Source: Notolepis coatsorum | Taxonomy: Eukaryota > Chordata > Actinopteri > Aulopiformes > Paralepididae | Assembly: GCA_963971535.1 (NCBI GenBank) | Contig: OZ020599.1 | Span: 95,374,048 to 95,438,047 of the forward strand | Length of the DNA stretch: 64,000 nt | Direction: 5' to 3' | Shown here: piece after piece, positions 1,600-63,234 of the stretch | Numbering within the stretch: position 1 is the first letter of the stretch | How the letters are laid out: each line of letters starts with the position of its first letter | Notes under the pieces: generated by a model | The model's database searches: none | Seen by the model: only the letters and a program-made list of their open reading frames with translations | Told to the model about the DNA's origin: nothing | Made by a program: the position numbers and the translations under genes

Positions 1600-1632
1600 T
1601 TTATTGATGAAATATCCAGTATAGATTGGAAC

Positions 1633-4215: not shown

Positions 4216-4261
4216 TAACCCGCTCAATAACCATCAGATCCTCCTCGCGGCCCTCGCAGGA

Positions 4262-7822: not shown

Positions 7823-8011
7823 TATATATATATATCTAACCCTGACTAACCGTACTGTCATGCACTTGTCCTAATAAACTAACATACACTGTAACACGCA
7901 ACACTTTGATAAACATGGTTACTCAGCTGATAGAGTTGTACCCTTCTTGCTGTCTTGTCGTACTTGTAAGTCGCTTTGGATAAAAGCGTCAGCTAAATGA
8001 CTAAATGTAAA
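7823..8011 (+). mobile_element. L2 3' UTR, continuation beyond the hAT insertion
   Basis: The stretch from CTAACCCTGACTAACC to CTTTGGATAAAAGCGTC and AAATGACTAAATGTAAATG is the reverse complement of the L2 tail seen at 27650-27830. It therefore completes the L2 copy that stops at about 5335. Confidence 0.75.
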
Positions 8012-38877: not shown

Positions 38878-39201
38878 CTATAAAGTCGGTGGGTTATCGT
38901 CGTCGTCAGGGGGGTCAGGGAACGCAGGAAGCTCTATCAACTTAGCTACTGGTCTAGTATAAGTCCGCCCTTGGACGATGACCTCTGCCGCTCTGACCTT
39001 CCCATCCGAACCATTGATCACTCTGCTCACACGGCCGGCTGGCCACGTAGCTCGGGGTAGTGACTTATGATCATCACGACGGTCCCCACGGTCAGGTTGT
39101 CCCTGTCTTTCACCCATTTCTGACGGGCTTGAAGGGAGGGTAAGTAGTGTAGGAGGAAGCGGGCCCAAAACTGGTCGGCCAGTACTTGGCTGTGTCTCCA
39201 C
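38878..39201 (-). CDS. BEL/Pao pol C-terminal tail (integrase end)
   Basis: The in-phase part from about 39075 to 38878 contains LPRATWPAGRVSRV and AAEVIVQGRTYTRPVAKLIE, a post-integrase domain characteristic of BEL/Pao pol proteins, and ends in an acidic DDDDNPPTL with a stop. The first 40 or so codons of the ORF are out of frame with pol. The neighbouring integrase ORF overlaps it, so a frame change lies near 39055-39080. Confidence 0.75.
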   Translation of the reverse strand: METQPSTGRPVLGPLPPTLLTLPSSPSEMGERQGQPDRGDRRDDHKSLPRATWPAGRVSRVINGSDGKVRAAEVIVQGRTYTRPVAKLIELPAFPDPPDDDDNPPTL

Positions 39202-39950: not shown

Positions 39951-40383
39951 AGACTCGCTCGGTCCCCGCGTGGCACACCACCTCGTCGTATTTCTGAATG
40001 ATCAGGTCGGTTACTCTGTGTCGGCTGCTTAGGACGATGGGATGCTGAACATCCTCGGCCAAGTCCGGGGCCCGTCTCAACCGACCACCCACCCTGATGA
40101 GGCCCTGGGCGTCGATTTCTGGGGCTAAGGTGAGGAGTCGACTGTCTGAGGGGACTGGCTTTGCCCTTATCAAACACTCCATTTCCTCTGGGAAAGAGTC
40201 TCTCTGCGCCCTCTGCAGCACAAGAAGTTCCGCTTCCTTGTAGGCAGATGCACTGAGGTCTGTGGTGGGGGGAAGCTCCGGGTGGTGCCATAGGAATGTC
40301 CTTTTCTGGGCACTCTCCAGAGTTTGACAGTCGTCTAGGTCCAGGCCCGTTGGAGCCGGGGCTTGACTCAGCCCGCAGAACAT
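39715..40383 (-). CDS. BEL/Pao pol: RNase H-integrase spacer and integrase zinc-binding domain
   Basis: The 222-residue ORF carries a spacer with LIRVGGRLRRAPDLAEDVQH and an HHCC-type zinc-binding domain (VVCHAGTERVFAEIRRRFW ... CPTC) that precedes the integrase core. It joins the RT/RNase H ORF across an eight-T run at 40388-40395, a typical site for a homopolymer length error. After the CPTC block it leaves the integrase frame near 39840. Confidence 0.8.
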   Translation of the reverse strand: MFCGLSQAPAPTGLDLDDCQTLESAQKRTFLWHHPELPPTTDLSASAYKEAELLVLQRAQRDSFPEEMECLIRAKPVPSDSRLLTLAPEIDAQGLIRVGGRLRRAPDLAEDVQHPIVLSSRHRVTDLIIQKYDEVVCHAGTERVFAEIRRRFWILQGREAVRRFQQTCPTCRKWRAQSIIPKMADLPPCRLRVGIPFHGRGLLRPIQRQERKRNREEVGHRV

Positions 40384-42470: not shown

Positions 42471-42915
42471 ACTTTTCCCTCAGCTGTGGGATGGGGTAAT
42501 CGTAGCGTGACAAACCTATGTCGTAGCTCGTGAATGCCTTGCTGATGGCGTACCGCTTCTCGGGCTGGTCGATCGCTGCAATGGTGAACGAGACGTTTTC
42601 ACCTTTGATTGTCTTTAAGTCTCGACGAATGGTACGGAGGGTCATGGTCTCCTCTGGGCCCCACAGGTCCAATTGAGTTGCGGCGGAGGCGAGGAGGAGT
42701 GTCTTCTACGACCCGTCGTCGAGGACGGCGTAGGTGTCGAGTACCTTGTCCCCGTGACTGAGGAGTACTCGTACCACTTTGAGGAGCACTCTGGAGCTCC
42801 CACTCTTTGCGGGGTCGATGTAGAGTACTTCTGCTCTCGAGTTGCTTTGTGGAGCTGGGTTTCGGTTTGTTGCTCTCGTGCAGTGCTTCGAGGTGAGCGC
42901 CGTCACACTTGCCAC
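42202..42915 (-). pseudogene. BEL/Pao protease region, stop- and frame-broken
   Basis: On the minus strand an aspartic-protease-like region reads LLKVVRVLLSHGDKVLDTY then AVLDDGS (catalytic DDG-type motif). It meets a TAG (42706-42708) directly after DDGS and continues in the same frame with TMTLRTIRRDLKTIKGENVS and LLIGSDHADLIVP to GWTLHVAPGP. It leaves frame again near 42250, where the RT ORF takes over. Upstream, gag and protease are in different frames, switching near 42840-42855. Whether the TAG is a mutation, an assembly error or a readthrough stop cannot be decided here. Confidence 0.75.
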
Positions 42916-44857
42916 ACTTCTTCTTAAGGCGGCATTCTGCTGCCATGTGGCCGCGCATGCAGCGGAAGCAGCGGCGGTTAGCTTTAATCCACTGACTTAC
43001 TTCGGCGATGGTCAGTTTCTTGAATGCGTCGCACTGTGACAGCCAGTGTTCGCTGTCGCAGTATTGACATGCGATCTTCCATTTCCCCTTGGCGGGGGGG
43101 TTGTGACTCTTCTGCCGTGACACCGACTCGGCCTGGTGCATCACTGTGATGGGCCTGCTTTGGTCTTTAAACCTCCTCGGTCCCTCTTTACAGTTCGAGC
43201 CACCCCATGCGAAGGTGTCAATCCTTAGGCTGCTAACCTCCCTAGCTAGGAAGTCAGCAAGATCCAGCAGTGACTGTTCTGGGGCATTCGGGTCACGGTA
43301 GTTTCGTTGCCGCCGAAAACGTTCTTGGCGGAATGGGGGGAGCTTCTCTAATATGCGCTCCACGTTGGAGTTGGCGTACAGCTCGTACATCCCCTTCTCT
43401 CGTTGGGACCCGAGCATCCCTACTAGGGACTGTACTTTGACGGATAGGTCATCCAGGGCTCGGTTGTCTTTAGCCGGGGGGAGGCGTTCGATCTCGCGTA
43501 TCTCCTGAATGACATAATCCCACGTACGTCCGTAATGTCCGTCGAGGGCAGCCAGGGTGTCAGAATAGGGAGTTTGTGAATTGGAGTATGCCAGTGCAAT
43601 GTTGTGCACTCTAGTTACCTTGAGATGCTTAAGGAGAATGGCGTACTTGTATGGCTCGTCCTGTACTCCTGACATGATTGTCTCTAGGCACATACGCAGC
43701 TCGGTATACTGCGCTTGGTCTTCTCTTGTGAAGTCTGGGAATACGGGGGTCCCAATGTAGGGTGCCATAGAGGGCTGTGACACTGACATACGTGGGGGGA
43801 GGGGCGTTCTCGGCGAGTCTCCCGGTACGTTGGGTCGTTGGTTCGTGCTGGGCGGGAACCAGGGGCTGGGTTGCCAGGCGCTGGTCCTCAGTGCCGTCTG
43901 GTGCTCTAACTCCCCACTGGGACGTGTTGGGGGTTCATGACGCAGCGTGTCATGACTGAGACCGGGGCTGCGCTGTACCTCCTGGTCTGAGATGGAGTAG
44001 TGCGGGTGGGCCCTCTGCCCTCCCTCGTCCTCAGTCAGGCTTTGTAGTCGCTCGGCTAGCTGCTCTGCAACGTAAGCAGGTTCTTCCCTTAGGCGGGGTC
44101 CCATGTAGCTTCGTCGGGTCGGGGAGGGTGCCCTCGACCCTTGGCGTGATGATCTCCGGGAGCTCTGGGTGGAAGAATGGGGAGTTACATTCTGGAGCGC
44201 TTGCGCCATCATTTGTGCTTGTAGGCGGTCTCGTTCTGCCTCGCGCTGCGCATTGACGCGGTCTCGCTCCATGGTTTCTTCAGCCTGGAAGCGCCTCTCT
44301 TCCAGTCTGAGATGTTCGCGCTCACTCTCTCGTTGCTCCTGGAGGCGGTCCCTTTCAGCCTGGATGCGCCTCTCTTCCACTCTGAGATGTTCACGCTCAC
44401 TCTCGCATTGCGCTTGGAGGCGGTCCCTTTCAGCCGAAGCGGTTATTGTGGCGATCAGGACTTGCGCTAGCCTCCTATCGGCCCTGCTTGGGGATAACGC
44501 TGATGACCTTGATTCGGAGCTGCCTGGGCTGGGCGGCGACCTGGTCTCCTCACGCGCTCCGAGGTCCATCTCGGGGGCGCGGTACTCTGTGGGTCTAGTC
44601 AAGTCATGCCTCGCTTGTCCCCCCCTGTAAGCTAAGTTAGTTTCACTTAAACTAGCTTGGGTCTCTACATCTAGGGTTGACTCCTCTGTAAGGTTGGGCA
44701 TGCTTGAGCTACCAATGTTATCCCTGCTTAGCATCCTCTTGGATAAGCTATGAGGTAAATCTACAGCGTAGCCCTCCAAGTAGGGAGGGGGCTGACGCTG
44801 GCGCCTAGGGCGCTCTAATGGGGGAGATCTGGTTGGGGAGTGTCCGCCGCTGGCCAT
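42599..44857 (-). CDS. BEL/Pao Gag
   Basis: The 752-residue ORF begins with an ATG 47 bases inside the 5' LTR boundary. Residues about 130-240 form a charged, heptad-rich region with repeated REHLR(V/L)EERR and ERDRLQ units, probably a coiled coil. A central capsid-like region (about 380-560) follows. Three zinc knuckles lie at 597-660: CQYCDSEHWLSQC, CFRCMRGHMAAEC and CGKCDGAHLEALH. From about residue 670 the frame is no longer that of pol. The real gag-pol reading moves by one base near 42845, so the last 80 residues are probably spurious. Confidence 0.85.
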   Translation of the reverse strand: MASGGHSPTRSPPLERPRRQRQPPPYLEGYAVDLPHSLSKRMLSRDNIGSSSMPNLTEESTLDVETQASLSETNLAYRGGQARHDLTRPTEYRAPEMDLGAREETRSPPSPGSSESRSSALSPSRADRRLAQVLIATITASAERDRLQAQCESEREHLRVEERRIQAERDRLQEQRESEREHLRLEERRFQAEETMERDRVNAQREAERDRLQAQMMAQALQNVTPHSSTQSSRRSSRQGSRAPSPTRRSYMGPRLREEPAYVAEQLAERLQSLTEDEGGQRAHPHYSISDQEVQRSPGLSHDTLRHEPPTRPSGELEHQTALRTSAWQPSPWFPPSTNQRPNVPGDSPRTPLPPRMSVSQPSMAPYIGTPVFPDFTREDQAQYTELRMCLETIMSGVQDEPYKYAILLKHLKVTRVHNIALAYSNSQTPYSDTLAALDGHYGRTWDYVIQEIREIERLPPAKDNRALDDLSVKVQSLVGMLGSQREKGMYELYANSNVERILEKLPPFRQERFRRQRNYRDPNAPEQSLLDLADFLAREVSSLRIDTFAWGGSNCKEGPRRFKDQSRPITVMHQAESVSRQKSHNPPAKGKWKIACQYCDSEHWLSQCDAFKKLTIAEVSQWIKANRRCFRCMRGHMAAECRLKKKCGKCDGAHLEALHESNKPKPSSTKQLESRSTLHRPRKEWELQSAPQSGTSTPQSRGQGTRHLRRPRRRVVEDTPPRLRRNSIGPVGPRGDHDPPYHSSRLKDNQR

Positions 44858-44885
44858 ATTATCACTGATATTATCACTGATACCC

Positions 44886-44902
44886 TCCGGCTCGAAGGAC
44901 CA
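44886..44902 (-). promoter_or_regulatory. Primer-binding site complementary to tRNA-Tyr
   Basis: On the coding strand, two bases after the 5' LTR, the sequence is TGGTCCTTCGAGCCGGA. Its complement TCCGGCTCGAAGGACCA matches the 3' end of vertebrate tRNA-Tyr including CCA (family knowledge). This gives the likely first-strand primer. Confidence 0.8.
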
Positions 44903-44904
44903 AT

Positions 44905-45848
44905 TGTAGCTAAGGGGCTACACAACCCTGACTGTATTGAAATGCTAGATTAAACCACTACTAAAGAATATTAATTAGCCAGACAGTATAGGTACACAAA
45001 ATGGCGGACACTCTATTAACTGCGAGGGGACAGTGATACAAAGTTGAATAATCACTTTAATAGTAATAGAAAGCATACATATTATACATAGCGCAGATCT
45101 CCTTTAATACGATAATGTCAATGCAACAATGTCAGAGGTAACGATAGTCCTGAACTACGAGTACTCGACCATTGATGCTTGGAATGGAGTGAGAAGAAGC
45201 GAGCAGCACGGGGAAAGCAAGATGGCGGGTGGAGACGGTAATTCTCTGGAGCTCCTACTCCAGAGAGCCGCAGACAAACTTGGGATAATCCTGTCGTCGC
45301 TGGTGAGGAGGGTCTCGTACGGACCGGGTTCCTGTATTCCTAGCGCCCGATGGCAGGATTAATAGCTATTAGTCCAAAAAGCCTGTTGGCATGGTTGCTA
45401 GCTAGTTAGCCCTTGTACACTTAGGCCAACCCGCATGTCGTCTTCAATAGGTAGTTAAATCCAGAACGCCGCTGGGTTCAGCTATAAGTCTCTCAACGTT
45501 ACTTCGCTCGAACAAGTCACTATACTGTGCCAATAGTGGCTCGACAATATTATGTGGTATCTAATTAGCTGTACAGCTCTCTGTCAAGATATGTTGCTTG
45601 CCGTCCTGTTACTGCTGCCAAACATCTCTTCTATAACACACACTCTGTCCAGGCATGTCCCAAGAACCCAGCGCATGCGCTCACGCTGTCTACGGCGTTA
45701 AGAGTGGAACATATACAAATAAGCGAATGATGAATACTGGTAGGTAAACAGATGACGTGAAAATATATATCTTATATATATAAACAATATATAAGTTATA
45801 CAAAATAATAAACGCAGACTCTATGTGTTAATCTGGACCTTCAGAACA
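44905..45848 (-). repeat. BEL/Pao 5' LTR
   Basis: A 944-bp copy of the same LTR lies next to the primer-binding site. By eye, single-base differences from the 3' LTR occur near 45029, 45201, 45343, 45384, 45592 and 45670. Confidence 0.95.
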
Positions 45849-49317: not shown

Positions 49318-49519
49318 CAAGATGGCGACAAATGTGGTGGACACTACCAGTGAAAAAAGCAGCCGTTTTAGTTTGCTGATGTGGCTCAATAGATTGCTGA
49401 AAACCAATTTGAATCAAGTGGAGGAAACAAATTCAGGTAGGCCATCAAACGATCAGGCCAAAAGGTCAACTTGCTTCATTTAATCTTAATCTTTCCACTG
49501 TTTCAGACAATGAGAATGC

Positions 49520-49617
<98 letters not shown>

Positions 49618-52600
49618 GGTGCATGTTACTGTCAGCTCATGGACTGGCTCTTCCCTGGCTCTGTGGACATGAGCAAGGTGAAGTTACAGGCTCAGGGCGA
49701 GGAAGACTGTAAGCACAACTTTAGTCTCCTCCAAAAGGCCTTCAACAAGAACAGCGTCACCAAGGTCTGTCCAAACCTCTCAATCAACGTCATGCTCTTT
49801 AATAAATATCTACTCGAGTCGATGCTCTTTTCTTTTTAAACGTATATATTGAACTTCTATAATTAGTTTGGGAACTAGTTTTTGTGTGGAAGACGTAATG
49901 TATTTTCACGTGCTATCTTTCAGATGATTCCCGTCGAGGAGATGATGGGAGGGGGCTTTAAAAGCAACTTCTCCTTCCTGAAGTGGTTCAAAGTTTTCTT
50001 CTTGTCAAACGTGAAAAATATGGACTATGACCCCGTCAAGGCCAGAGGAGGTCAATATCTTGGCACCCCCATGTCGTCGCCCACTCCCCCTGAAGCAAGT
50101 AAGTCAGATCTACCCTTGGTGTGGTCGGCGTTCAAGCAAAACGGCACAGTTATTGTCATGACAGCGCGTTTTGACGACGTGATGGCCTGTTTTGGAGCCA
50201 GAGTAGATTAACCCTTTCACTGCCACACTACAGAAGGTTAACCCTTTAGTGATTGTAAAGGGTGGTTAACCTTTTGTAGTGTGGCAGTGAAAGGGTTAAC
50301 CTGATGTTGTGTGGCAGTGAAAGGGTTAACCTTCTGTGTATTGTCGCAGTGAAAGGGTTAACCTGATGTTGTGTGGCAGTGAAAGGGTTAATGATTCAAT
50401 AGATTTATTCAGTATACATACACGAGACATGTAGTGAAATGATTGTGCACCTTGATTGTGCAAAAAATAAAATAGACATGATAAAAAGTACTAAGATAAA
50501 ATACAATACAATGCTAAGCTTACGAATTAAAGGTAATGAGTCCTATATCCACTACTATACAATATACTATACAATGAATATACAGTTATACTATATATAA
50601 CTATACTATACGAAAACATAGTTATGTTTTTTAAAGTGACCTTTTTTGTGTTTAAAGTGACCTGTAGTGTGTTTGTGTGTGAGAGAGTGCAGGATGTGTG
50701 GTGTGTGTGTGTGCTTGTGTGTGGAGAGATCAGTGTTCAGTGTTCTGATGGCCTGGGGGAAGAAGCTGAGTCTGAGTCTCTCTGTTCTTGCTGCGCATAT
50801 TATGAGGAGTAGGTGATGAACGTCTCCGTTCTTGTGTATTTATCAGATTTCCATTTGTTTTGTCCGTTTCACTCTGTGACAGATGAGGACGGCGACACAA
50901 AAAAAGCATGCTGTTACGACGAGAAGTGGAAGGAGACGTTCAGATGGATAGAGCGCAGCGCTCACGGAGAGCTCTACGCCTACTGCCGCGTGTGCGACAA
51001 GGACGTGACCATCTCCCACGCGGGCCTCCGTTCCCTCAAGCGACACGCGGCGACCTCCACGCACAAGATGAGGACGAGGACGGAGTCGGCCAAGCGCTAC
51101 CTCGAACTAACCGCGGAGCCCCCGGCGTGCAGCGAGGCGGCTATCCGGTTCATTCAGAAACAATGCCACTCCGGCGGTGGCCAGGTGTCTAGCGACTACG
51201 CCCGCCACGTGCTGGGCTTACAGTACCCCGAAGACATCGTGTCCGTTTGCCGGGACACTCCGTACTGCGTGTACATCTACGGAGGGGTGGTGCTCGCGGA
51301 GGAGGCCGACTGCGTCTCCGTTGTCCTCATTGGATTCTTCGACGTGAAAAAAGCCAGACACTGCATCCGGCTCCTGGACGCTCTTCAGCCTCCGGGTGAA
51401 GACGACGCGAGAGGCACGTCGGATGCGGCGGCCGTGCTGGAGACCTTGAAGAGGTTTGGTTTTCCAGCGGCTAATCTCGCCGCTGTCTATTTGGATGGCG
51501 GCAGCAAGGCTGCCGCGGAGCAGATCGGCTTACGGCTCAGGGAACTTAACCCCAACCTGGTGGCCTTGGGAGGGCTGTATGAGGTGGCCGACACTGCGTG
51601 CCGTGCTGGGGTCATGGGGCTCTCCAGTCAGGCTCGGGAGCTGATTGTAGACATCCATGCCCACTACTCTTCCTGCTCTACCAAGAATGACAACCTGAAG
51701 GCTCTTTTTGCCTCCGATAAAAATGACGACAGTCCATCTTATCATCTCGACACCGGCTGCCTTAACTTCCGCCTGTTAGTCAAAAACCTGTTGGGAATGT
51801 GGAAAGATTTAGCCTCGTATTTCAGCTCCTGTGACGAGGACGATGACAAAGCCAGGTTGATCTCCGCTCACCTGCAGGATCACAAACTCAGGGCAACATT
51901 TCTGTTCCTGGGTCAGGCCTTGGAGCCCCTTCACACCTTCCAAAGTCGCCTGGAGGCTCGGCAGGGAGCCGCCCGCGCAGACTTGGTGCACATCTTGCAC
52001 GACGCCAGCGGCCTCCTGCGCTCCTATGCCTCCAGCTTCCTCCGTCCTCAGGCCGTCGTGCGCTTCCTCAAGGAGCGCGGCGACCACATCCCGAAGGACA
52101 AGAAGTTCCACCTCCCGGGGGCCGAGCTCAGTCTGGGCGGGTCCGCCGCGGAGGACTTCCTCACCGAGTCGGAGTCCGTTGTGGACGACGTTCTGCCGCT
52201 CGTACGGGAAGAAGCCGCGTCCTTCTACACGGCGCTCACGTGCAGCGTGGCGGAGCGGCTGCCTCTGAGCGACGCGGCTCTGAGGAGCATGGCGCAGCTC
52301 CTGAACCCCCGGGGGAGGCTGAAGGTTACCGGCAAGGCGGTGGGGGAGCTCGGAACCAAACTGGGCCTCTGTGAGTCTTTGGAGGAGGTCAACCAGCTCA
52401 CCGGTGAGTTCCTTGAGTATCAGCTGGAGGAGGAGGACGAGGGGGAGAAGGACGAGGGGGAGAAGGACGAGGGGGAGAAGGAAGACCCGGCGGCGGCCGT
52501 CTCTCTGGAACAGCACTGGGGCGGCGTCTTGAAGGCAACCGAGTCCACTTCCATCTTCAGGAGACTCGTTTTGACCCTCTTGTCCCTCCCTTGCCCCCCG

Positions 52601-55600
52601 CTCGAAGCTCAGAGGGTTTTTGACCAGGTGTGTAAATGGGGAGGTTTATGTAAACATTATTTGTATAGCACCTTTCATACTAAAATTACTTTTGTTTACG
52701 GTTTGATTCAGTTTTAGAATAGACGGTAATAAAAATAATAAAACTCCATTCTGGAAAGAAAACTTACACCAAAGATATAGGTGAATGATCTTTAATCAGA
52801 ATGTGATTTTGTGTGCGTGTGTGTGTGTCTTTTGGTGCTTGTATGTCTGCGTCTCATCTCAGGCCATAGAGAACGGGGATGCATCATTGTTCTTAGAGAG
52901 CGAAGGCGAGACAGGAAGTGAGCAGGAGGCTGAGATCGCCGCTGACAGAACTCTCTCCGACGACAGTACTGGTGCCACGAAGTCGCCCAAGAAGAGAGGC
53001 AGGCCGAAGAAGGCAATTAATGGCTCGTCAGGTAAGTTGAATATACTTCATAGTCTGTTATGTAGACTCATTAGGAGGAGGATGGTGATGATGAAGATAT
53101 AGTGTAACAAGAGCATCCACATCTTGTAACATTTAATGAGGTCATTAATACAGCAATTTTTTTTTTCTTTGACACAAGTTGAAATGGTCTGAATCAAAGG
53201 TGAAATTCTTACTTTTCTTGCTGTTTTTATTGGTTTAGTTATGTTTCACATTGGCCATTGACAAATTAATCAATGTTCTCAATAAAGCCATGTGATCATG
53301 CAGGATAGCCTTTTATTGGACATCATTTTGAATCCTAACAAACTTGCACATTTAAAAAATGTAGTTAGCATGTATAACATTAGTATATGATATATATAAT
53401 ATATATAGTATATGCTAAGCTACGGTATATACTATATACACATACAGTATTAACAGTATTGATGTACAGTATAAACGGATAAAGTGAATCACTATTAACA
53501 CTATAGACCAGGGGTCTCAAACTCAATTTACCTGGGGGCCGCTGGAGGTAGAGTCTGGGTGAGGCTGGGCCGCATCAAATATTCCACAAAAAAAATATTT
53601 TTTTTTAATATTCTTTTTTTTTTTTTTTTTATGTCAACGTTAACACGCACAATTGAGCCAAAAGTCACTCAATTAATGACAGATTTCATTGATAAATTGA
53701 GGGAAAACTTTGCAAGTCGATTTGATGAATTTTTGTGAGCAACCCATTTGCCAATGTAGCTGCTATTTCCACAAAAGGACAAGAGTTCCTTGCATCACTT
53801 CACATTGATGAAGGTCTCCTGCAACTTGAAATAATTGACATGCAAGCATCATCTGCTCTGAAGCAGGCACTTGAGAATTAATCCACCACAACATTTTGGA
53901 TAAAGTGTATTCATGTCAAGACATTCCCCAAAATAAAAACGCTGGCAATATCTGTGCTAACAATGTTTGGCTCAACATACACCTGTGAATCCAGTTTCTC
54001 TCACATGAATGCCATTAAAACAAGCAACCATGCCTCCTTGACAAATGAGCATTTGCATCACTGTTTGCGGGTAGCCCTCACTTCCCCTATGAACCCTCTT
54101 TCTCTGCCATTGCCCAGTCAAAGAAGTGCAATCGCTCTCATTAGATGTGTGTATGTAGGCTAGGCCTGTCTGCCCCCCACCCCCCTGATGTTTGAGAGTT
54201 AAGAGTCGACAATAAGTGCTATAAGATGCTGTGATTTGCTGTTGTTGCACAGACATGAAGCATTTTTTCATAAGCTCAGCTGCACTATAAATGTGTTTTT
54301 TTGTTCAAGTGTTGATGTTAGAATGTTCAGATGCACATCATGCACTTGTTTGTTTTTTATTTTATTTTTATATTGAAATGTTGAAGAGGAGATGTTGCAG
54401 TTGTTGCACAGTCATAAATTAAGCACTTTTTGCAGGAGATGTTGCAGATGTGGCACATAAATGAAGCACTTTTTTTGAAAAGTATACTACTTTTGCAATG
54501 TAGTTAAATAAAAGTTGTGAAAATGTGGTTGCGTGTTGTGTCAAGTGTACATATATTCATAGCACGGGGAGGCGCCGTGGCAGTCCGGCCCCTGGCCCCT
54601 TGGGTTTCTGACAATGTGGCCCCCTGAACAATTTAGTTGAATAGCCCTGGTGTACACAGTGGGGGGTAAATGCTCCAGGGATCGATTCAGCAGGACTAAA
54701 TAAGGCTGGTGTGAAGGTGCCCTTGGCCCGTTCACTACCACTCTACCAAAGGGTTAACCCTTTCACTGTGACAATACAGAAGGTTAACGATAGGTTATGT
54801 AGATAACCTAGTTATATTAGTATTGGCTGAGCGTCCCGCTCTGAGCCTTATGAGATACCCCTTATCTCCTATGATACCTATTGTATCTCCAACGAAAACA
54901 ACTACATGCACCCCACCTGTCTGGGGCCCCGCCCCTATGGTGGCACCGCCCATATAATCGTGACTCTGGTCACCAAAACACCCTTCCTCGCCAAATCCCG
55001 TCCCAGGAAAAGATCCCTCAAGAGGGAACTCAGGGCCGCGCAGAGCGGGACGCTCAGCCAATACTAATATAACTAGGTTATCTACATAACCTATCGTTAT
55101 ATATCGTATTTGCTTTCGCGTCCCGCTCTGAGCCTTATGAGATATGGGGAAGAGCGGACGCGAGACCCGACAAATGTACCCCCTGAGGACCCGTAAGCCC
55201 ACATCAAGGGGTGCGGGGAGCCCTGTCACCCCATCCTTCCTAATGAAGGGGGGGCGCAGTCAACTCCACCTGAATGCGAACAAGAGGGAACTAGAACCCC
55301 TTGAACACACCGTACAGGCGGAACCACATGTGACTCAACACACTGTGGCCCATACCCATACACTCCTGCTACCGGACCAAAGGACGGGAAGCAGGAAAGG
55401 CCACAGACCCCAGAACCGCCTGGGAGACAGAACCCCCGGTCATGTCCATGAGGTAAAACCTTACAAAGGGACCCGGGGAGGACCATGAAGCTGCAGCACA
55501 GATGTCCTCCACCGAGGCCCCACCCAGGAGAGCGGCAGAAGCAGCCACCCCACGAGTGGAGTGCGCCCTGGCGCCCCCAGGGGGATCCTGCCCAGCCAAC

Positions 55601-58600
55601 GTGTAGCAGAGGGTAATGCCCTCGCACAACCAATGGGACAGGCGCTGCTCCGACAGTGCCTTACCAGCACGAGCCCCACCGTAACAGACAAAAAGCTGGT
55701 CGGTAACCCTGAAGTCCTGAGTACGGCTGAGGTAAATCCCCAAGCACGGACTGGACATGACAGGTGAAGGCCCGCATCTAACTCACTAGTGTGAGGAGGA
55801 GGACGAAACGCCTGAACCACAATATCCCGGGAGCGGAAGGAACTCCGGATATTCTTAGGCACGAAAGCAGGATTAAGTCGCAGAGTGGCACCGCAATCGG
55901 TCCGAAAAGACAGGCACTCTGGACGTACCGAGAGAGCACAGAGCTCACCTACGCGTTTAGCGGAAGTGACAGCCAGTAGGAACGCGGTCTTGAAGGACAG
56001 CTGTCCCAACGGCGCCTGCTCGAGCGGCTCAAACGGGGCCAAGGACAACCGACCGAGGACCAATTGAAGATCCCAAGTCGGAGCCAAGGAGCGTTGCACC
56101 GGCTTAACGCGTCGAGCGCCAAGCAGGAAACGCTTCACAAGAGGGTGGCTGAACAAGACATCCCCTCAAACCCCTCATGATAGGAGGATATAGCTGCTGC
56201 ATATACCCTCACCGTCGAAACCGACAGTCCATCAAGAAGAGACTGGAGGTAACTAAGGACAGCATCCAGGGGGCAGGAGACTGAGTCCCGGCCCCCCGCC
56301 TTACACCACACTTGGAACATACGTCATCTGCCCGCGTAAGCGCGACAGTGGAGGGAGCATGCGCATTCCAGATGGTAACACCATCAGGATCAAGAACCTG
56401 CGCCCCTCAACGTACCCGTCCCAACAACTGACCTAACAGATGTATGGGGAAGAATCCCTGGCGGCACGGCATCGGTCCCAGACCCGCCTGGCCATGTCCA
56501 GACGTAATCCTCACCCGTCAGGATGAGGACCGCCCCGCGACAGTACACCTGCACCCACATTCTCCCTGCCGGGGACGTGGGGAGCCCTCAGGCCGCGCAG
56601 ATGGAGGACGCCCATAGCCAGCCGCCCGCCGCCTGGTGCAGACAGGGGAAGCGTACTCCTCCCTGTCTGTCGATACACAACACTGACGTCGTATCGTCCG
56701 TCCTGATCAACACCATTTGTGGACCAGAAGGACCGCTTTCAACACCAACACATTGAACGTAGCGCAGACCGGGCAGCGTGTAGCTTTATGCCAAGCAAGC
56801 AGTGCAAAAATTTACCATAGTGGCATGCAGTAATGCGCCTTTCATTTTCCGCCGCCCAGCGCCCAGGTCGCGCGGAAATAGGCTGTCTATTGCCATTCTC
56901 TTTGACAAACTCTAACCTTAACCAGCTCCTTAACAACGCCTAAACTTAACCGTTCTAACCTTAACCAACTCCGAAACAATGCCTAACCTTAACCTTAACC
57001 TTAGAAATTATATTGCCATTCTCTTTGACAAACTCTAACCTTAACCAGCTCCTTAACAGCGCCTAAACTTAACCGTTCTAACCTTAACCAACTCCGAAAC
57101 AATGCCTAACCTTAATCGGCGAAAGAATACACGTTAAAAAAAAATCACGTTAAAAAATATTTTCGATGGGATTCGAACTCGCCAGCAAACAAGCCATAGG
57201 ATCCACAGCCATGTGTCCTTGCCAATTGAGCTATTTGCTAGATACTGAATAAGGGGCGGTGACTTATATATATTGAGCTCCGCTCGTGTCGCATGCGCGG
57301 GCACCTCGCGCGAGCACGCCGGCGCACGCACGCACCTGAGCGAGCACGCCGCCGCCGGTGCACGCACGGTAGCATTTGTCTGAAAAGAAGGGCGCTTTAC
57401 CGCACTAGCGTGCGGTGACGAATGCGGAAGCATTTTTGCACTGCTTGCTTGGCATTAACGTACAGGCGACCGGGCAGCATGGTTTGCCAGCTGCCCCCTA
57501 CTGCGTTGGCCCGACCCGTCACCAGCGAGGGAGGCGTCGGTGAAAACGCGACGTGAGACAGCGCCGTAACCGTCCTAGGACGGAACCTCCCGAGCGTGTT
57601 GACAACACGCTCTGAGATGGATGCCCATAGCCCTCCAACCGTTGACTGGGAAGAGGAGTACTCTACATCCAGTCTACAGCAACCCCAGGCTGGTAGAGAC
57701 CTGCCTGGTACGAGACCTGACGATCCACCTTGACCGCGAAGGACCAGAACGTCATCAGGGCAGAACACTCCGTAACCCCTGACGACGCAGAGGCCCCAGT
57801 GCGGCCTCCACGCACTTGGTGAAGATGCGGGGAGCCAGAGAAAACCGAACTGCAGCCTCTGGTACTCATACGCTAACCCTGCAAAGGAAGCGTAGGTAAG
57901 CCCTAGGATGGAAGATCGGAGATGCGCATACGCATCCTACAGGTCTATGGAGGAGAACCAGACCCTCACCTGACAGTGTTCAACAGGTAGGAGATGATCC
58001 AAAAAATGCTGAACCTTCCCATGGGACAGGTCCAGCCTGGGTCTTACACCCCTCCCTCCCGACTTCTCAGGCAGAGAACACCGGGAGGAGAACGCCACGA
58101 CGATGGCTTGCTTCGTCCACAGAGATTGGATCTCGTTGACCAGAGCTGTCACTGCTGGAGACCCTGACAATAGGGTCTGTACCAAACCTGAAAACGGGTG
58201 GGGTTGTGTAAACACAAGTCCCCGCCTCAGCGTTCTCTCCATCCACCTCGACATATGGTACTGCCGTAGTCATATGTGACAACACTCCCAACGCACCCGC
58301 CGTCACGTGGCGCAGGTCCGCCAGGAACTGTAGATAGTTGGCCCGGTCCCCCCGCTGTGCGTAGCCAACCCTGGAACCGTGCGAGCAGCGCGTTCCGTGT
58401 CGGAACATCTGACCCTGACACCACCCACGAGGCAATCGCACCGACAGAAAGGGCCGGTCTGATACGGGGGGCTTCCGATGAAAAAAGCCCCCCCACTGAA
58501 CACCCCTCCAGAACATGCTGAGGAGTTGTTCTGCAGCCGGACATGCAAGGTGTAAGGCCCCCATGGGTTCCTACACACCGTAGCCCTGCAGTGATATTAC

Positions 58601-61600
58601 TACCACCCCAAATCATGTGAGCTGCGACCACTTGCCAATATTTCAGGAGTGGGAGGCACCAACATGATACCTGGCCTGGCGAAGGCGAGGCCGGGGAAGC
58701 CCGCACTGTGTGCCTCAAAAGGTTTCGAGCCCCCCTGCTGACAACACTTAAGTTGACAGACGTAACACCAGGCTCAACCAACACAGTTCAAGGTGTGGGA
58801 GCCGCTTGACAGCACAACATTCTCACGGACAGACCCAGGCTCAGCCATCAACTGGGTGTCAGCCCCTGTCCCCATGAGAAGCGAAAGGGGGGCCGCCCGC
58901 GCATCAACGAAGGCATGCGGCCCGCAGCCAAAGGAAACAATCAGAGCCCACTTTTTCCGCTGGTGTTGGGGAAGGGAGTGATCGAAGAGCGGGCTGCTCG
59001 CGGCAGGACGGTGACGGCTTGTTTGTTCAAGCCAAACCCATCCTACATGGCCGATCCCTCGGCCGCCAAGGCTGTCGGCCTTGTGGACACCTGTCGAATC
59101 AACGCCCAGGATACCTCCGGCAGGGGAAAACATGGCCGCCTGTCGAGGGCCTCGTCATCGCCGCTGACGAGGCCGTGCTCTCTCCTCTTCTGGCTGCGCG
59201 GTGTGAGGCGGTGTAGGGCCTAGGACAATACCGCCCGCGCTCCAGCAGAAGACCAAAATCCCCTGCGGAGAGGGGAACCCTGAGCGGTTATAGCTTGCGG
59301 CTGGGTCAAAGCTAATAACGTCAACAACCTCGCGCGATGTGTCGACGTCGGCTGGCCCTCAAGGCCCCGCCACCAGACACAATTTTTTTTAATAGAAGAA
59401 AACAGCAATTCGAACACAGTTCTAATCGTTGCCAATTCCATACCGTGGCGGTACAAGCTTTAACAGCCCACCAGCCACTCGCCAGGCCGACCCACCCATG
59501 GCGTCGGCCGGGCGGGGCACTGTTTCAATATGTCAAAAACAAAGGACTGATGTTAACACGGAGCACCAGTGGTGGTTGCAAACAGCAACCTCCACTGTGG
59601 TGTGCACCATGAAAGGGTTAAATGAATAAAAGAACTAAACCACAAAATACTGTAGAATGAGCAAACCCATACACACAAAGTTAAGGGGAGGCGGACCAGA
59701 GCGAACTAGTCCCGCCTTCATTCAAAATATTCACAACAGCACACCAGCCCTAGTTTAGCCCATTTACCAAAAAAGGTAAACAAAGCCCCCCCCCGCACTA
59801 CTCCCCCAGTATACCGATTGACCGTCAGTATGAATGGTTGAGAGGAGAGAAAACTGTAGCAAGACAGACCTTCTCATAGCAGAGTGACAAAACGAAACAA
59901 TAGCCCACTACACAGGGCCGCCTCAGGGGGTGGGGGGCCTCGCGTCTAAATACGCACAGGGCCTCACATTTCTCCCAGGCGGCCCTGCCCTTATACTACT
60001 GCAGCCTAGCATGAGGCGATGTGGGACCCAGATCAACAATTGCCTGCGCACAGTGGAGATACAATAGGTATCATAGGAGATTAGGGGTATCTCATAAGGC
60101 TCAGAGCGGGACGCGAAAGCAAATACGATATATAACCCTTTCACTGTGACAATACAGAATGTTAACCCTTTCACTGCGACAATACAGAAGGTTAACCCTT
60201 TCACTGCCACGCGACAAAGGGTTGACCCTTTCACTACAGAAGGTTAACCCTTTCACCACCACACTAAAGACCGTCTGTAGTGTGGTAGTGAAAAGGTTAA
60301 CCTGCTGTTGTGTGGTAGTGAAAAGGTTAACTAGCAGTGTAAACCAGTCAGGATTTACATAATGAGGAAAAAATATGCGGCCATTGAAATTTTTTTTGCA
60401 GTAGAATTTTATAGCCTATTCATCCACAGAGTTTGTCCATTAACCCTTTCACTACCACACGACAGAAGGTTAACCCTTTCACTACCACACTACAGACCGT
60501 TGGAGCTCAGGATCAGCCTCCAGCGTCGGCTGCTCTGGGGATCCACGCTCACCACCAACATACAGGCGCCTCATTAGCTCTCAATACGAACAACTGCAAA
60601 CAGGCAGCAATGCTTCTTAACCCTTTCACTACCACACTACAGACGGTTAACCTTTCACTACCACACTACAGAAGGTTAACCTTTCACTACCACACTACAG
60701 AAGGTTAACCTTTCACTACCACACTACAGAAGGTTAACCTTTCACTACCACACTACAGAAGGTTAACCTTTCACTACCACACTACAGGCGGTTAACCTTT
60801 CACTACCACACTACAGACGGTTAACCTTTCACTACCACACTACAGAAGGTTAACCTTTCACTACCACACTACAGGCGGTTAACCTTTCACTACCACACTA
60901 CAGACGGTTAACCTTTCACTACCACACTACAGAAGGTTAACCTTTCACTACCACACTACAGAAGGTTAACCTTTCACTACCACACTACAGAAGGTTAACC
61001 TTTCACTACCACACTACAGAAGGTTAACCTTTCACTACCACACCACAGAAGGTTAACCTTTCACTACCACACTACAGAAGGTTAACCTTTCACTACCACA
61101 CTACAGAAGGTTAACCTTTCACTACCACACTAGACGGTTAATCCCCATTAATCTGTAGTGTGGTTGTGAAAGGGTTAACCCTTTGTCGTGTGGCGGTGAA
61201 AGGGTTATTAACCTTCTGTATTGTGGCAGTGAACGGGTTAACCATTTGGTAGTGTGGTAGTGAAAGGGTTAAATAGTATGGCCCCAAGACACAGGTACCT
61301 TTCTGTGTTAGTATATGTGTAACGGAGGTCCGTGAGTAATATCCCCAGTCACGATGGACGTGTGTGTTGTGAAGTGACTGTGGCAGTAAGCGGGCTGCGA
61401 GTTAAACTCACTTCCCCATAGCAGGGTTAAAAGACACATAGATACCGTACCAAGCAGTGAATTCACCTCTTAGTGCAGCAGTCTATGTTGTCGCCCACGG
61501 CGTGGGAGACCCGGGTTCGAAACTCCCTCGGGGCATCGACATTTAACGCAACGCAGAAGGAGTAATATACGATAGGTCACATATGCATTATACAGGGCTC

Positions 61601-63234
61601 CTGCTGCGTTCTGGTTTAATAATCAGAAATGTAGGCCTTCAGTCAATTAAATTCGTTTTATTGAATTAGATCATTTTGCATGTTTTATCATGAGGATCAG
61701 TATTTATTTTAGTATTTTAATGGCTATAGCTGAGACCTGAGTACTGTATTTCGTGCTTCCATGTCCCATGGAAAAATTACAATAAACATGACTTTGACTT
61801 GACTTTGAAAAAGGTCTTAAATATGATTCTGATAGGTCTTAAAATTTATTGGATCAGGAAGTTACTTCTATGTTGCGATAACTTTTGTTTATCACATTTA
61901 AATATTTTTGGGGGAGATGTCCGGGCTGCAAAGTAAGCAGTATGGTAATAGCCTCATTAGTTACTTCTGAATTTTCCTTCATACTTTTCTTTAACATTAT
62001 TGCTGTGAAATAGGTATTCAATTCTATTCAAAGTAGTCTTTAAAAAGTCTTAAACTGGAACCCTAGCAGGAACTCTGATCATAAGTATGATTTGTGGACT
62101 AGGTTTTCATAATAAATGCAGTGCGGGTGACTGAGCGTCCCTGTATGCACCCGTTTCTGGATTGCCATTAATCCCATTAGGATTGTCTCTAAGCATTGTC
62201 TGGTACACAGAATGTAAGTGCGTTTTGGAAAAACTATTTTACACAGTTGTAATGGCTCATATTAGTAATGTGTGGACTTCTAATGTATTGCATGTTTACC
62301 AAAAATCAGTTATGTTCGATTGTTAACCAATGGTTTGACTGTTAAACCAATATAGTTATCGGAAACCATAATAAGTCGATACATATATTGTAATTGAAAA
62401 ATGTTAATTACATTTTCATTGTTCCAAATCGTGGTGTTTCACTTAACCTGATCTCTGAATTGTTGCTGATTGATATGTTGTTTTCCAGAGGTGAATTGCC
62501 TTAATGGGACAGTGAAGCCATGTACAGTTCTCCTGAAGACGATAATAAGTAAGAGAGACTGCGTCAATAGGGATAATGATATTTAGTAATCACCTATGTC
62601 ACTTGATGACAGTTTAAGTGATACATAGGTGATACACTACCAGGGAATGCTTATAACAATATATTCATTTTCTATTCATCTCATTATTGTACAAATATTT
62701 AATCAGATTTTAAATGTATTCAGGTCAAAAGGTTGATATCATCCATCTACTTTTAACATGGGAAAGAAAAACACAAACTTAACCATGTCTTTCTCTCTTT
62801 CCCTTTCTCTTCTCTCTCGCTTTCCCTTTCTCTCTTTTCTTTTTCTCTCTCTCTTTCGCTTTCCCTTTCTCTCTCTTTTCTTTCTCTCGCTTTCCCTTTC
62901 TCTCTCTCTTTCTCTCGCTTTCCCTTTCTCTCTCTTCTTTCTTTCTCTCTCTCGCTTTCCCTTTCTCTCTCTCTTTCTCCCTCTTTTTCCCTTTCTCTCT
63001 CTCGCTTTCCCTTTCTCTCTTTTCCTTCCTCCCAAAGGGCCAAATAATGAAAATAACACATTTGTAGAGGAGGGCATTACATGGAAAGAGGTAATGTATT
63101 CAGTCTACCGTTTGTTTATTTATAATTTTCATTTTATTGTAAAATTACTAACATGGAGGAGAAAAAAAGCGATTGCATTTTTATATGACTGACAAATGAA
63201 ACTCGCCTGTCTTCTTCAGATATGCCTGCCCTAA
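49318..63234 (+). CDS. Chimeric gene: EB1/MAPRE-type CH domain fused to BED-like zinc finger and hAT-transposase-like region
   Basis: Predicted exons: 49318-49436 (ATG at 49322), 49619-49764, 49924-50098, 50883-52627, 52863-53031, 62489-62548, 63038-63090, possibly a last exon 63220-63234 ending in TAA. All introns are GT-AG and each junction keeps the frame (phases 1, 0, 1, 0, 1, 1, 0). About 821 residues are predicted before the last exon. Residues about 14-125 form an end-binding-protein CH domain, 180-206 a C2H2 BED-like finger, 210-727 a hAT-like body, 661-679 an acidic EGEKD repeat and 770-778 an AT-hook. The EB1 coiled coil and EB-homology tail are absent. By domain knowledge it could tie a microtubule-tip module to DNA binding; that role is inference. 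The exon order is directly visible, but splicing needs RNA support. Confidence 0.75.
49322..50098 (+). CDS. Exons 1-3: EB1/MAPRE-type calponin-homology domain
   Basis: ATG 49322 is in strong Kozak context (CAAGATGG). Exon 1 gives MATNVVDTTSEKSSRFSLLM and WLNRLLKTNLNQVEE; exon 2 GACYCQLMDWLFPGSVDMSK and NFSLLQKAFNKNSVTK; exon 3 MIPVEEMMGGGFKSNFSFLK, WFKVFFLSN and MDYDPVKARGGQ. This order and spacing are those of the microtubule-binding CH domain of EB1-family proteins (R-x-x-x-L-x-W-x-N, YCQxMDxLFPG, IPVxx, NFxFxxWFKxFF, DYxPVxARxGQ). The domain is complete and uninterrupted. Phases 1, 0 and 1 at the three donors allow clean fusion to exon 4. A (CT)n tract abuts the exon 2 acceptor. Confidence 0.85.
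49525..49616. repeat. (CT)n microsatellite at the exon 2 splice acceptor
   Basis: About 45 CT units run directly into CTAG and the first base of exon 2 (49619). The tract takes the place of the polypyrimidine tract of intron 1. Confidence 0.95.
50211..50392. repeat. GTTAACC/AAAGGGTT minisatellite in intron 3
   Basis: Five to six units of GTGTGGCAGTGAAAGGGTTAA (reverse of AACCCTTTCACTGCCAC) with variable CTGATGTT or CTTCTGT spacers. The same unit forms the large array at 60137-61280. Confidence 0.92.
50394..50815 (-). mobile_element. LINE 3' fragment in intron 3
   Basis: 50730-50810 (CTGATGGCCTGGGGGAAGAAGCTGAG and following) resembles a dispersed fish LINE 3' region, and 50400-50620 is AT-rich with a TTTATTCAGTATAC end suggesting a minus-strand tail. 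It fills most of the intron upstream of exon 4. Confidence 0.4.
50883..52627 (+). CDS. Exon 4: BED-like zinc finger and hAT-transposase-like body
   Basis: The exon is 1,745 bp, GC- and CpG-rich compared with its surroundings, and open throughout. It begins after ACAG with two bases completing a phase-1 codon. CRVCDKDV...LKRHAATSTH gives a C-x2-C-x16-H-x5-H finger. A body follows with LAAVYLDGGSKAAAEQ, VALGGLYEVADTACRAG and VKNLLGMWKDLASYFSSCDE, the RNase H-like arrangement of degraded hAT proteins. Near the end, LTLLSLPCPPLEAQRVFDQ resembles the hAT dimerisation segment (usually ...SERVFS). I cannot identify an intact catalytic triad, so it is probably non-transposing and domesticated. An EGEKDEGEKDEGEKE repeat precedes the dimerisation part. 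The donor CAG-GTGTGT at 52628 closes it in phase 0. Confidence 0.8.
52863..53031 (+). CDS. Exon 5: acidic linker and AT-hook
   Basis: The acceptor TCTCATCTCAG precedes 52863 and the donor G-GTAAGTT follows 53031. The 56 codons are acidic (ESEGETGSEQEAEIAADRT) and end with SPKKRGRPKKAINGSS. KKRGRPKKA is a canonical AT-hook (R-G-R-P core) that binds the minor groove of AT-rich DNA. The phase is 0 in and 1 out. Confidence 0.75.
53509..54649 (+). mobile_element. Decayed hAT transposon in intron 5
   Basis: The left end is CAGGGGTCTCAAACTCAATT at 53509; a possible right end GAATAGCCCTG closes at 54649. Inside, a frame-broken transposase C-terminus includes LTMFGSTYTCESSFSHMNAI (53954 onward), where ESSFSHMN is the hAT dimerisation motif of the Charlie/ZBED5-like branch. 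This branch differs from the hAT-like part of exon 4. Confidence 0.7.
54742..54785. repeat. Minisatellite unit left of the DIRS element
   Basis: AACCCTTTCACTGTGACAAT and ACAGAAGGTT belong to the same unit that continues at 60137 on the other side of the DIRS element. The region 54650-54741 is unassigned. Confidence 0.85.
55369..56156 (-). pseudogene. DIRS tyrosine recombinase, frame-broken
   Basis: The N-terminal part (55461-56156) contains KTAFLLAVTSAKRVGELCAL with the first catalytic Arg (residue 68 of that ORF). The C-terminal part in another frame (55369-55758) contains RAHSTRGVAASAALLGG with the H-x-x-R pair (His66, Arg69), then ASWSSPGPFVRFYLMD with the likely nucleophilic Tyr102. The two parts overlap in different frames near 55640-55760. 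The enzyme would insert the circular cDNA without a target duplication. Confidence 0.8.
56785..57458. mobile_element. MITE-like insertion inside the DIRS element
   Basis: TTATGCCAAGCAAGCAGTGC (56786 onward) is mirrored by GCACTGCTTGCTTGGCATTAA ending at 57458, as near-perfect inverted termini of about 26 bp. An imperfect direct repeat with ACCGGGCAGC flanks both sides (56769-56778 and 57470-57479). Inside are a 123-bp tandem duplication of AACCTTAACC-rich sequence (about 56889-57115) and a tRNA-like segment. Confidence 0.6.
57160..57245 (-). other. tRNA-like segment (SINE head or pseudo-tRNA)
   Basis: On the minus strand TAGCTCAATTGGCAAGGAC resembles an A box and GAGTTCGAATCCC a B box, about 50 bases apart. 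The T arm and acceptor stem do not pair properly and the anticodon loop is too large, so it is not a functional tRNA. Confidence 0.4.
57397..58254 (-). pseudogene. DIRS reverse transcriptase/RNase H remnants
   Basis: ORF 57937-58254 has VNEIQSLWTKQAIV, GRGVRPRLDLSHGKVQHFL and VWFSSIDL followed by a stop, in the place where DIRS RTs read an IDLKDAY-type catalytic block. Downstream frames (57663-57869 and 57397-57768) contain a decayed DD-containing segment (CPDDVLVLRG). Several frame changes and stops make it non-functional. Assignment relies on the arrangement relative to the recombinase. Confidence 0.6.
58255..59912 (-). other. DIRS 5' region, gag not recognisable
   Basis: Minus-strand ORFs of 100-185 codons overlap in several frames (58067-58564, 58227-58784, 58774-59133). 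They have the codon bias of the element but no domain I can name. By position they should derive from gag. Confidence 0.35.
59913..59987. mobile_element. 75-bp MITE related to the hAT-like element at 5452-7822
   Basis: It starts CAGGGCCGCCTCAGGGGG and ends TTTCTCCCAGGCGGCCCTG. The first 18 bases match the left end and the last roughly 50 match the right end of the larger element, so nearly all of the interior is deleted. It lies within the right part of the DIRS element. Confidence 0.8.
60137..61280. repeat. 28/29-bp minisatellite array (TTTCACTACCACACTACAG)
   Basis: The core is GTTAACC-TTTCACTACCACAC-TACAGAAG. From 60620 to 61140 about 18 units run head to tail with AAG/ACG/GCG variation at one site. 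60137-60340 and 60438-60500 hold looser units, and at 61150-61280 the orientation flips. Smaller patches of the same unit occur at 34297, 50211 and 54742, and one copy near 19966. Confidence 0.95.
61318..61545. repeat. TGTAACGG dispersed repeat, copy 2, with tRNA-like B box
   Basis: 61318-61415 parallels 20964-21062. Downstream, 61470-61530 contains GACCCGGGTTCGAAACTCC, a B-box-like word preceded by CGTGGGAG, suggesting a tRNA-derived head. Confidence 0.5.
61593..62077. mobile_element. hAT-type MITE in intron 5
   Basis: The left end CAGGGCTCCTGCTG pairs with the right end AGCAGGAACTCTG. The body contains the AGGTCTTAAA and AAGTCTTAAA words common to a widespread fish hAT MITE. 62078-62488 has no recognisable feature. 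Confidence 0.65.
62489..63090 (+). CDS. Exons 6-7: small downstream exons, tentative
   Basis: 62489-62548 lies between TTGTTTTCCAG and GTAAGA and encodes VNCLNGTVKPCTVLLKTII after a split codon. 63038-63090 lies between CTCCCAAAG and GTAATG and encodes PNNENNTFVEEGITWKE. Both keep the frame of exon 5 (phase 1 into 1, then phase 0), which is the main argument, since two short exons would match by chance only rarely. A possible last exon at 63220 adds four codons and a TAA. No domain is recognised. Without transcripts, other or additional exons remain possible. Confidence 0.45.
62786..63037. repeat. TTTCCCTTTCTCTC tract at the exon 7 acceptor
   Basis: About 240 bases of almost pure pyrimidine on the plus strand, in units of CGCTTTCCCTTTCTCTCT, lead directly into CCTCCCAAAG and exon 7. 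The arginine/glutamate-rich minus-strand ORFs here are repeat translations. Confidence 0.93.

What the first reader, a model, noticed from the sequence alone, without database searches (positions are those of the whole stretch)
49318..63234. A gene that fuses an EB1-type microtubule-binding CH domain to a domesticated hAT-transposase-like protein
Three exons encode a complete end-binding CH domain, and every predicted junction downstream keeps the reading frame: into a 1.7-kb exon with a BED-like C2H2 finger, RNase H-like hAT body and hAT-type dimerisation remnant, then an AT-hook exon. The EB1 coiled coil and tail are replaced by these DNA-binding parts. EB1-family CH domains track microtubule plus ends and hAT-derived proteins usually act on DNA (family knowledge). 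A protein with both could link chromatin or foreign DNA to microtubules; that role is inference. I do not know a described protein with this architecture.
Basis: partly seen in the sequence, partly recalled or inferred. Interest (0 to 1): 0.92.

Follow-up and report, generated by a model that had tools for sequence, protein, structure and literature searches.

The report
Fish DNA methyltransferase with captured transposase
The stretch is the front half of a fish gene for a DNA-methylating enzyme that, long ago, gained a microtubule-end-binding module and a seemingly dead jumping-gene enzyme at its front; the first module was already known, and I found no description of the second.

The parts
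49322..49436 (+). Coding exon 1: start codon and first part of the EB-type CH domain
   Evidence: ATG at 49322; donor CAG|gtaggc; all 9 query relatives hit here, 6 of them starting exactly at 49322
49619..49764 (+). Coding exon 2: CH domain core; its acceptor ends a ~90-nt (CT)n run
   Evidence: in frame, AG/GT; all 9 query relatives match from 49618
49924..50098 (+). Coding exon 3: end of the CH domain and start of linker
   Evidence: in frame, AG/GT
50883..52627 (+). Coding exon 4 (581 codons from 50885): BED-like zinc finger plus hAT transposase body
50921..51070 (+). BED-like zinc finger inside exon 4 (W15, W21, C34, C37, H54, H60 of the exon product)
   Evidence: ligands kept in 187/188, 187/188, 194/202, 201/207 relatives in one alignment and 198/208, 190/207, 194/213, 198/215 in another, of 221
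51131..52627 (+). hAT body: RNase H-like core, helical insertion, C-terminal hAT remnant; no acidic residue on the first catalytic strand of the window protein
52863..53031 (+). Coding exon 5: acidic linker with an AT-hook-like KRGRPKK
   Evidence: CAG|gtaagt donor; low-score matches to relatives
62489..62548 (+). Coding exon 6: linker ...EVNCLNGTVKPCTVLL...
   Evidence: 12 of 12 residues identical to P0018; phases fit
63038..63090 (+). Coding exon 7: linker PNNENNTFVEEGITWKE; the gene is inferred to continue beyond the window
   Evidence: matches P0003 (E 0.012); phases fit
63220..63234 (+).
   Evidence: relatives continue into PWWP instead

Best explanation
The window holds the 5' half of a ray-finned-fish dnmt3ba-type gene. 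Its full product is very probably EB-type CH - BED-like finger - inactive hAT transposase - linker - PWWP - ADD - C5 DNA methyltransferase. Origin (inferred): a tandem DNMT3B-MAPRE1 segment was duplicated, the 5' exons of a mapre1 copy were joined to the second DNMT3B, and a hAT open reading frame lying between them was captured as an exon, before sturgeons split from gar and teleosts. Mechanism (inferred): the methyltransferase makes de novo 5mC; the BED-hAT arm binds DNA, and perhaps self-associates, so that it brings or holds the enzyme at particular DNA; the CH adds a protein-binding, perhaps microtubule-binding, handle. It would work like SETMAR, with DNA methylation in place of histone methylation. 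Confidence in identity and architecture 0.95; in the DNA-targeting role of the hAT arm 0.45; in microtubule binding by the CH 0.35.
For: Named full-length relatives are fish DNA (cytosine-5-)-methyltransferases, many called 3 beta duplicate a or duplicate b.2. Pfam finds CH, PWWP, ADD and DNA_methylase above cut-off in P0136, P0184, P0248, P0282 and P0122; in P0303 PWWP is below its cut-off. 310 of 310 collected relatives match the hAT profile (by construction: all queries contained that region), 246 have the GGSPCNDL motif, and CH, hAT and that motif occur together in 197, in that order in 195. Exons 6-7 match the linker of relatives. The hAT body stays colinear with Chanos, 464-497 of 504 positions aligned at 36-62% identity, in 15 relatives. 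The fold of P0007 matches both EB1/EB3 CH and Hermes. By motif positions, gene models run from another DNMT3 into CH-hAT in P0286, P0287 (Acipenser sinensis) and P0266 (Synaphobranchus), and from CH-hAT-DNMT3B into a near-complete EB1 in P0122 (Clarias). Published synteny: dnmt3bbb beside mapre1b (PMC6976628 passage); gar dnmt3ba in tandem with dnmt3bb.1 (PMC5513168 passage). Ricefield eel dnmt3ba cDNA encodes 1484 aa with CH (PMC5320511 passage). Zebrafish Dnmt7/Dnmt3ba catalytic domain methylates DNA in vivo when tethered (PMC10038036 passages).
Against: The PWWP, ADD and catalytic exons of this very gene were not seen: the window ends at 64000 and 16 searches of its own assembly did not complete. 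No transcript of this species was seen. The hAT relation rests on predicted structure: Pfam is silent, identity to Hermes is 10-11%, and Foldseek's whole-model TM-scores are modest (0.37-0.50). Loss of the first catalytic Asp is clear in the window, but of 219 aligned relatives 27 have Glu and 4 Asp at position 133, so inactivity in every relative is not proven. The hAT body is more conserved than the adjoining linker to PWWP in 15 of 15 relatives, but not than the PWWP-ADD linker (higher in 4, equal in 2, lower in 9). In 94 of 246 relatives with the methyltransferase motif the BED finger is missing or not alignable, among them zebrafish and pike dnmt3bb.2. The published neighbours of teleost dnmt3bba, the name that paper gives to dnmt3ba, do not include mapre1, and P0286/P0287 are labelled unverified in their database. 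No DNA- or microtubule-binding data on this protein were seen; EB1's K59, K66, K100 and K113 are changed in the window.
Confidence: 0.85

Rival explanations
1. A free-standing CH-hAT gene ending at 63234, as first read, with no methyltransferase half.
For: An in-frame stop follows a possible acceptor at 63219/63220; no convincing DNMT3 domain match in 45-64 kb; some gene models stop at or near PWWP (P0001, P0003, P0078).
Against: Exons 6 and 7 resemble linker exons of relatives, which continue; 246 of 310 relatives carry the methyltransferase motif; P0184 is a whole CH-to-methyltransferase ORF.
Confidence: 0.05
2. Two neighbouring genes wrongly joined: a CH gene and a domesticated hAT gene.
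For: No transcript of this species was seen; CH and hAT have separate origins.
Against: CH motif and hAT profile lie in one protein in 208 of 310 relatives, including continuous ORFs on short contigs (P0007, P0184); phases fit.
Confidence: 0.02
3. The hAT body is only a scaffold, kept because its helical parts hold the enzyme in oligomers or bind partner proteins, with no DNA sequence preference.
For: The BED finger is gone in zebrafish and pike dnmt3bb.2 while the hAT body remains, and missing or unalignable in 94 of 246. hAT transposases oligomerise (recalled).
Against: In the 221 relatives of the first two searches the zinc ligands are kept wherever the finger aligns, with few exceptions. 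hAT-derived proteins with BED plus Hermes DNA-binding parts bind specific DNA (PMC8097297 passages).
Confidence: 0.35
4. The CH keeps EB-like microtubule plus-end binding and holds the methyltransferase on microtubules or the spindle until released.
For: EB1/EB3 fold matches at TM-score to target 0.76-0.96; the K89 equivalent (important for EB1 binding to microtubules, recalled) is kept in 140 of 204 relatives and in the window. DNMT3 oligomerises through its catalytic domain (recalled), which could replace the EB coiled coil.
Against: K59, K66, K100 and K113 are changed in the window; no microtubule localisation in the passages I read; no EB C-terminal domain.
Confidence: 0.35

Closest known systems
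Fish dnmt3ba (dnmt7) and dnmt3bb.2 with an N-terminal CH domain
   Same: Same gene family; CH together with PWWP, PHD-like/ADD and catalytic domains is published (PMC5320511, PMC5513168, PMC6976628; passages)
   Different: The ~500-residue hAT part and the BED finger between CH and PWWP are not named in any passage read; a 2026 review table lists only PWWP, ADD, MTase for dnmt3ba (PMC13205079 passage)
SETMAR/Metnase (SET histone methyltransferase fused to Hsmar1 transposase)
   Same: A chromatin-methylating enzyme fused to a DNA transposase that no longer works as one; SETMAR binds its old transposon ends (763 of 764 peaks, PMC8327481 passage)
   Different: DNA rather than histone methylation, hAT rather than mariner, ray-finned fish rather than primates, transposase at the N-terminal side, much older
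hAT-derived ZBED and CGGBP proteins
   Same: BED finger plus hAT-derived part
   Different: Those are DNA-binding proteins or transcription factors (PMC8097297, PMC10027918; passages); here the part is fused to an enzyme and an EB-type CH
EB1/EB3 (MAPRE family)
   Same: CH domain, 44-49% identical for P0007 against EB1/EB3 chains
   Different: No EB C-terminal domain

Membership tests
DNMT3 (dnmt3ba type) | PWWP, ADD and C5 methyltransferase domains in the window gene itself | not testable with these tools
   Window ends first; own-assembly searches unanswered
DNMT3 (dnmt3ba type) | Same N-terminal half and linker exons as full-length fish DNMT3B | tested here: met
   55-57% identity over 93-98% of the query for P0004, P0005, P0006, P0008, P0009; exons 6-7
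DNMT3 (dnmt3ba type) | Relatives carry PWWP, ADD, DNA_methylase above cut-off | tested here: met
   5 of 6 proteins scanned have all three; P0303 has PWWP below cut-off
EB/MAPRE family | EB-type CH domain | tested here: met
   Sequence match for the window protein; fold match for relative P0007
EB/MAPRE family | EB1-like C-terminal domain (PF03271) | tested here: not met
   Absent in the predicted window protein and in 5 of 6 relatives scanned; in P0122 it belongs to a near-complete EB1 appended by the gene model
hAT transposase superfamily (as ancestry) | hAT fold: RNase H-like core with helical insertion | tested here: met
hAT transposase superfamily | BED-type finger at the N-terminus | tested here: met
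   Cx2Cx16Hx5H with two upstream Trp in the window, conserved where it aligns; Pfam zf-BED only borderline (best E 0.022) in 3 of 55
hAT transposase superfamily | DDE catalytic triad | tested here: not met
   Window: no acidic residue at 127-138; relatives have Tyr at 130 in 219/219 and at 132 in 209/219, but Glu/Asp at 133 in 31/219; second position D in 119/214; third Q in 102 and E in 85 of 221. Positions placed by secondary structure, not by a residue-level structural alignment
hAT transposase superfamily | C-terminal dimerisation domain PF05699 | tested here: inconclusive
   No match in the window protein; a degenerate LPCPPLEAQRVF stretch ends exon 4
Host-transposase fusion gene | Host domain and transposase in one transcript | tested here: inconclusive
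   Continuous ORFs on short contigs in relatives (P0007, P0184) and a published eel cDNA of fitting length; nothing for this species

The most novel reading that the evidence does not exclude
Ray-finned fishes carry a de novo DNA methyltransferase that has been steered since before the sturgeon-gar split by a captured, catalytically dead hAT transposase: the BED-hAT arm recognises transposon ends or CG-rich sites and directs 5mC there, while an EB1-derived CH couples the enzyme to the microtubule system in the egg and dividing cells.
Probability: 0.2. Interest if true: 0.92.

Novelty: new variant of a known kind. Interest (0 to 1): 0.74.

Why it matters
How de novo methyltransferases find their targets is a long-standing question. 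A DNMT3 with a built-in transposase-derived arm, found from sturgeon to cichlids and in Danio (D. aesculapii dnmt3ba, D. rerio dnmt3bb.2), makes sequence-guided DNA methylation directly testable in a laboratory fish. It also adds a much older, DNA-methylating counterpart to SETMAR. Pfam misses the hAT part, which may explain why the studies of fish Dnmt3 that I saw report only the CH.

Tried and rejected
Rejected: the stop at 63234 (spurious last exon); a two-gene reading; the AT-hook as a conserved part (14 of 310 with RGRP). Pfam and a PDB sequence search with profile A1 gave no hAT match; only structure did. Pfam scans of one frame per strand of 35-49 kb found nothing; no neighbouring host gene was identified. 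Rfam: only a UnaL2 LINE element. dN/dS was not computed: no coding DNA of relatives was at hand. In the methyltransferase tree 3 of 26 chosen fish rows were dropped because the start motif was not found (P0115, P0221, P0198); the salmonid third copy came out as a separate lineage (100/100), but its deeper placement is weak. Intron positions of mapre1 could not be compared. P0266, P0286, P0287 and P0122 are taken as signs of gene adjacency, not as real proteins. Ten paper searches: no listed row was about a transposase part of a fish Dnmt3; several searches listed only 10-20 of hundreds or thousands of papers. The two papers holding both 'dnmt3ba' and 'transposase' use the words for unrelated things (passages). 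Only open-licence PMC papers were searched.
Full report
What was checked. The claimed exons were joined and read: 49322-49436, 49619-49764, 49924-50098, 50883-52627 and 52863-53030 give an open frame of 783 codons. Exon 5 more likely ends at 53031 (CAG|gtaagt); two more exons, 62489-62548 and 63038-63090, then fit in phase and give 821 codons. Both are supported by relatives: LNGTVKPCTVLL at 62500-62535 is identical to Merluccius P0018, and GPNNENNTFVEEGITWKE resembles Coregonus P0003 (E 0.11 and 0.012, so short but well-placed matches).

What the gene is. A search of about 5.8 billion proteins with the 783-aa product returned 116 hits. Those with a methylase domain are about 1000-1371 aa long, 37-59% identical where they align, and the named ones are called DNA (cytosine-5-)-methyltransferase, some '3 beta, duplicate a'. 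A second search, with residues 1-760 of P0029 (Salminus), gave 280 hits of which the best 120 were listed; a third, with residues 1-690 of P0108 (a salmonid paralogue), gave 104. Every named hit in those three listings is a ray-finned fish; only the 7992-7994 candidates sharing most words were scored each time, so absence elsewhere is not shown. Pfam finds CH, PWWP, ADD and C5 methylase in Chanos, gar, paddlefish, Clarias and P0184; in zebrafish dnmt3bb.2 (P0303) PWWP falls below its cut-off. Of the 310 collected relatives, 246 carry the GGSPCNDL motif, 208 a CH core motif, and 197 have CH, hAT and methyltransferase together, in that order in 195; the two exceptions, P0286 and P0287, look like merged gene models.

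The CH. It is the EB type: human EB3 and EB1 are the best solved structures by sequence and, for relative P0007, by fold (TM-score to target 0.76-0.96; model pLDDT 77.4). EB1's lysines 60, 62, 89 and 112 are kept in the window; 59, 66, 100 and 113 are not. That K89 matters for microtubule binding is recalled. No EB C-terminal domain is present.

Age and paralogues. CH plus the hAT body is found in gar (P0248), paddlefish (P0282) and sturgeons (P0286, P0289) as well as teleosts, and in zebrafish dnmt3bb.2 (P0303) and its pike and Labeo counterparts, where the BED finger is not found (pike and zebrafish). Among 246 relatives with the methyltransferase motif, the finger is missing or unalignable in 94. 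The fusion thus predates the split of sturgeons from gar and teleosts; an age above 300 million years is recalled, not measured. Compared with Chanos, the hAT body of 15 relatives aligns at 464-497 of 504 positions with 36-62% identity; the hAT-PWWP linker shows 21-57%, PWWP 45-83%, the methyltransferase 76-94%. The hAT body exceeds the adjoining linker in 15 of 15, but exceeds the PWWP-ADD linker in only 4 (2 equal, 9 lower). A colinear open frame of about 500 residues kept this long argues for selection, of moderate strength; dN/dS was not computed.

Origin. Some automatic gene models run through neighbouring genes and so hint at the order. By motif positions, in Acipenser sinensis (P0286, P0287, both labelled unverified) and Synaphobranchus (P0266) another DNMT3 end precedes the CH-hAT part; in Clarias magur (P0122) a near-complete EB1 follows the methyltransferase. 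Published synteny agrees in part: nol4lb-commd7-dnmt3ba-dnmt3bbb-mapre1b in teleosts (PMC6976628 passage) and dnmt3ba in tandem with dnmt3bb.1 in gar (PMC5513168 passage); but the neighbours listed for teleost dnmt3bba, that paper's name for dnmt3ba, do not include mapre1. In human, DNMT3B and MAPRE1 are neighbours (recalled). The simplest account is a tandem duplication of DNMT3B-MAPRE1, then joining of mapre1's first exons to the second DNMT3B with a hAT element captured between them. The window also carries a separate, decayed hAT copy in intron 5 (Dimer_Tnp_hAT E 4.5e-4, just below the curated cut-off, about 53891-54055).

Transcripts. For this species none was seen. In relatives, P0007 (797 aa, CH through hAT and tail, on a 2857-nt contig) and P0184 (1502 aa, whole protein, on a 6151-nt contig) leave about 470 and 1640 nt outside the ORF, whereas the window's introns 1-4 alone add up to 1360 nt and intron 5 to over 9 kb; I infer that both reflect spliced RNA. 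A cloned ricefield eel dnmt3ba cDNA encodes 1484 aa with an N-terminal CH, and all four eel Dnmt3 forms examined stain mainly spermatocytes (PMC5320511 passages).

How it probably works. Shown by others: the catalytic domain of zebrafish Dnmt7 (= Dnmt3ba) methylates DNA in embryos when tethered by dCas9 (PMC10038036 passages). A review reports that knock-down of dnmt3bb.2 harms brain and retina, and its table calls the dnmt3bb.2 methyltransferase disrupted or inactive (PMC13205079 passages). Inferred: the BED-hAT arm provides DNA binding and perhaps oligomerisation, by analogy with SETMAR, which sits on its old transposon ends (PMC8327481 passages), and with hAT-derived CGG-binding proteins that use a BED finger plus Hermes DNA-binding part (PMC8097297 passages). 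A preference for CG-rich DNA would suit a CpG methyltransferase, but is a guess. The CH may tether the protein to microtubules or serve another partner.

Novelty. The CH of fish Dnmt3ba/Dnmt3bb.2 is known. I found no description of the hAT part among the rows listed by ten searches of open-licence papers or in the passages seen of 13 papers; no paper was read whole. I therefore file it as a new variant of a known kind: a host-transposase fusion in which the host enzyme is a DNA methyltransferase.

Noticed in passing
window 53891-54055: A decayed, separate hAT copy lies in intron 5 on the + strand (Dimer_Tnp_hAT E 4.5e-4, 20.4 bits, cut-off 21.4).
   Followed up: partly
window 49525-49616: A ~90-nt (CT)n microsatellite forms the polypyrimidine tract directly before the exon 2 acceptor; its length could affect splicing of the CH exons.
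   Followed up: no
window 38878-44917: Long minus-strand ORFs (among them 324, 703 and 772 aa) look like a gag-pol retroelement, by eye BEL/Pao-like.
   Followed up: no
window 814-5289: LINE reverse transcriptase-like ORFs on the + strand, by eye.
   Followed up: no
window 7953-8006: UnaL2 LINE 3' element on the + strand, the only Rfam match of the window at gathering thresholds.
   Followed up: no
window 25770-26173: Tc1/mariner-like transposase fragments on the + strand, by eye.
   Followed up: no
P0301 (Merluccius polli): A 903-aa CH-hAT protein is named 'Microtubule-associated protein RP/EB family member 3' in a database, probably a misnaming caused by the CH.
   Followed up: no
P0303, P0234, P0262: The paralogue dnmt3bb.2 keeps the hAT body but shows no alignable BED zinc finger.
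   Followed up: partly
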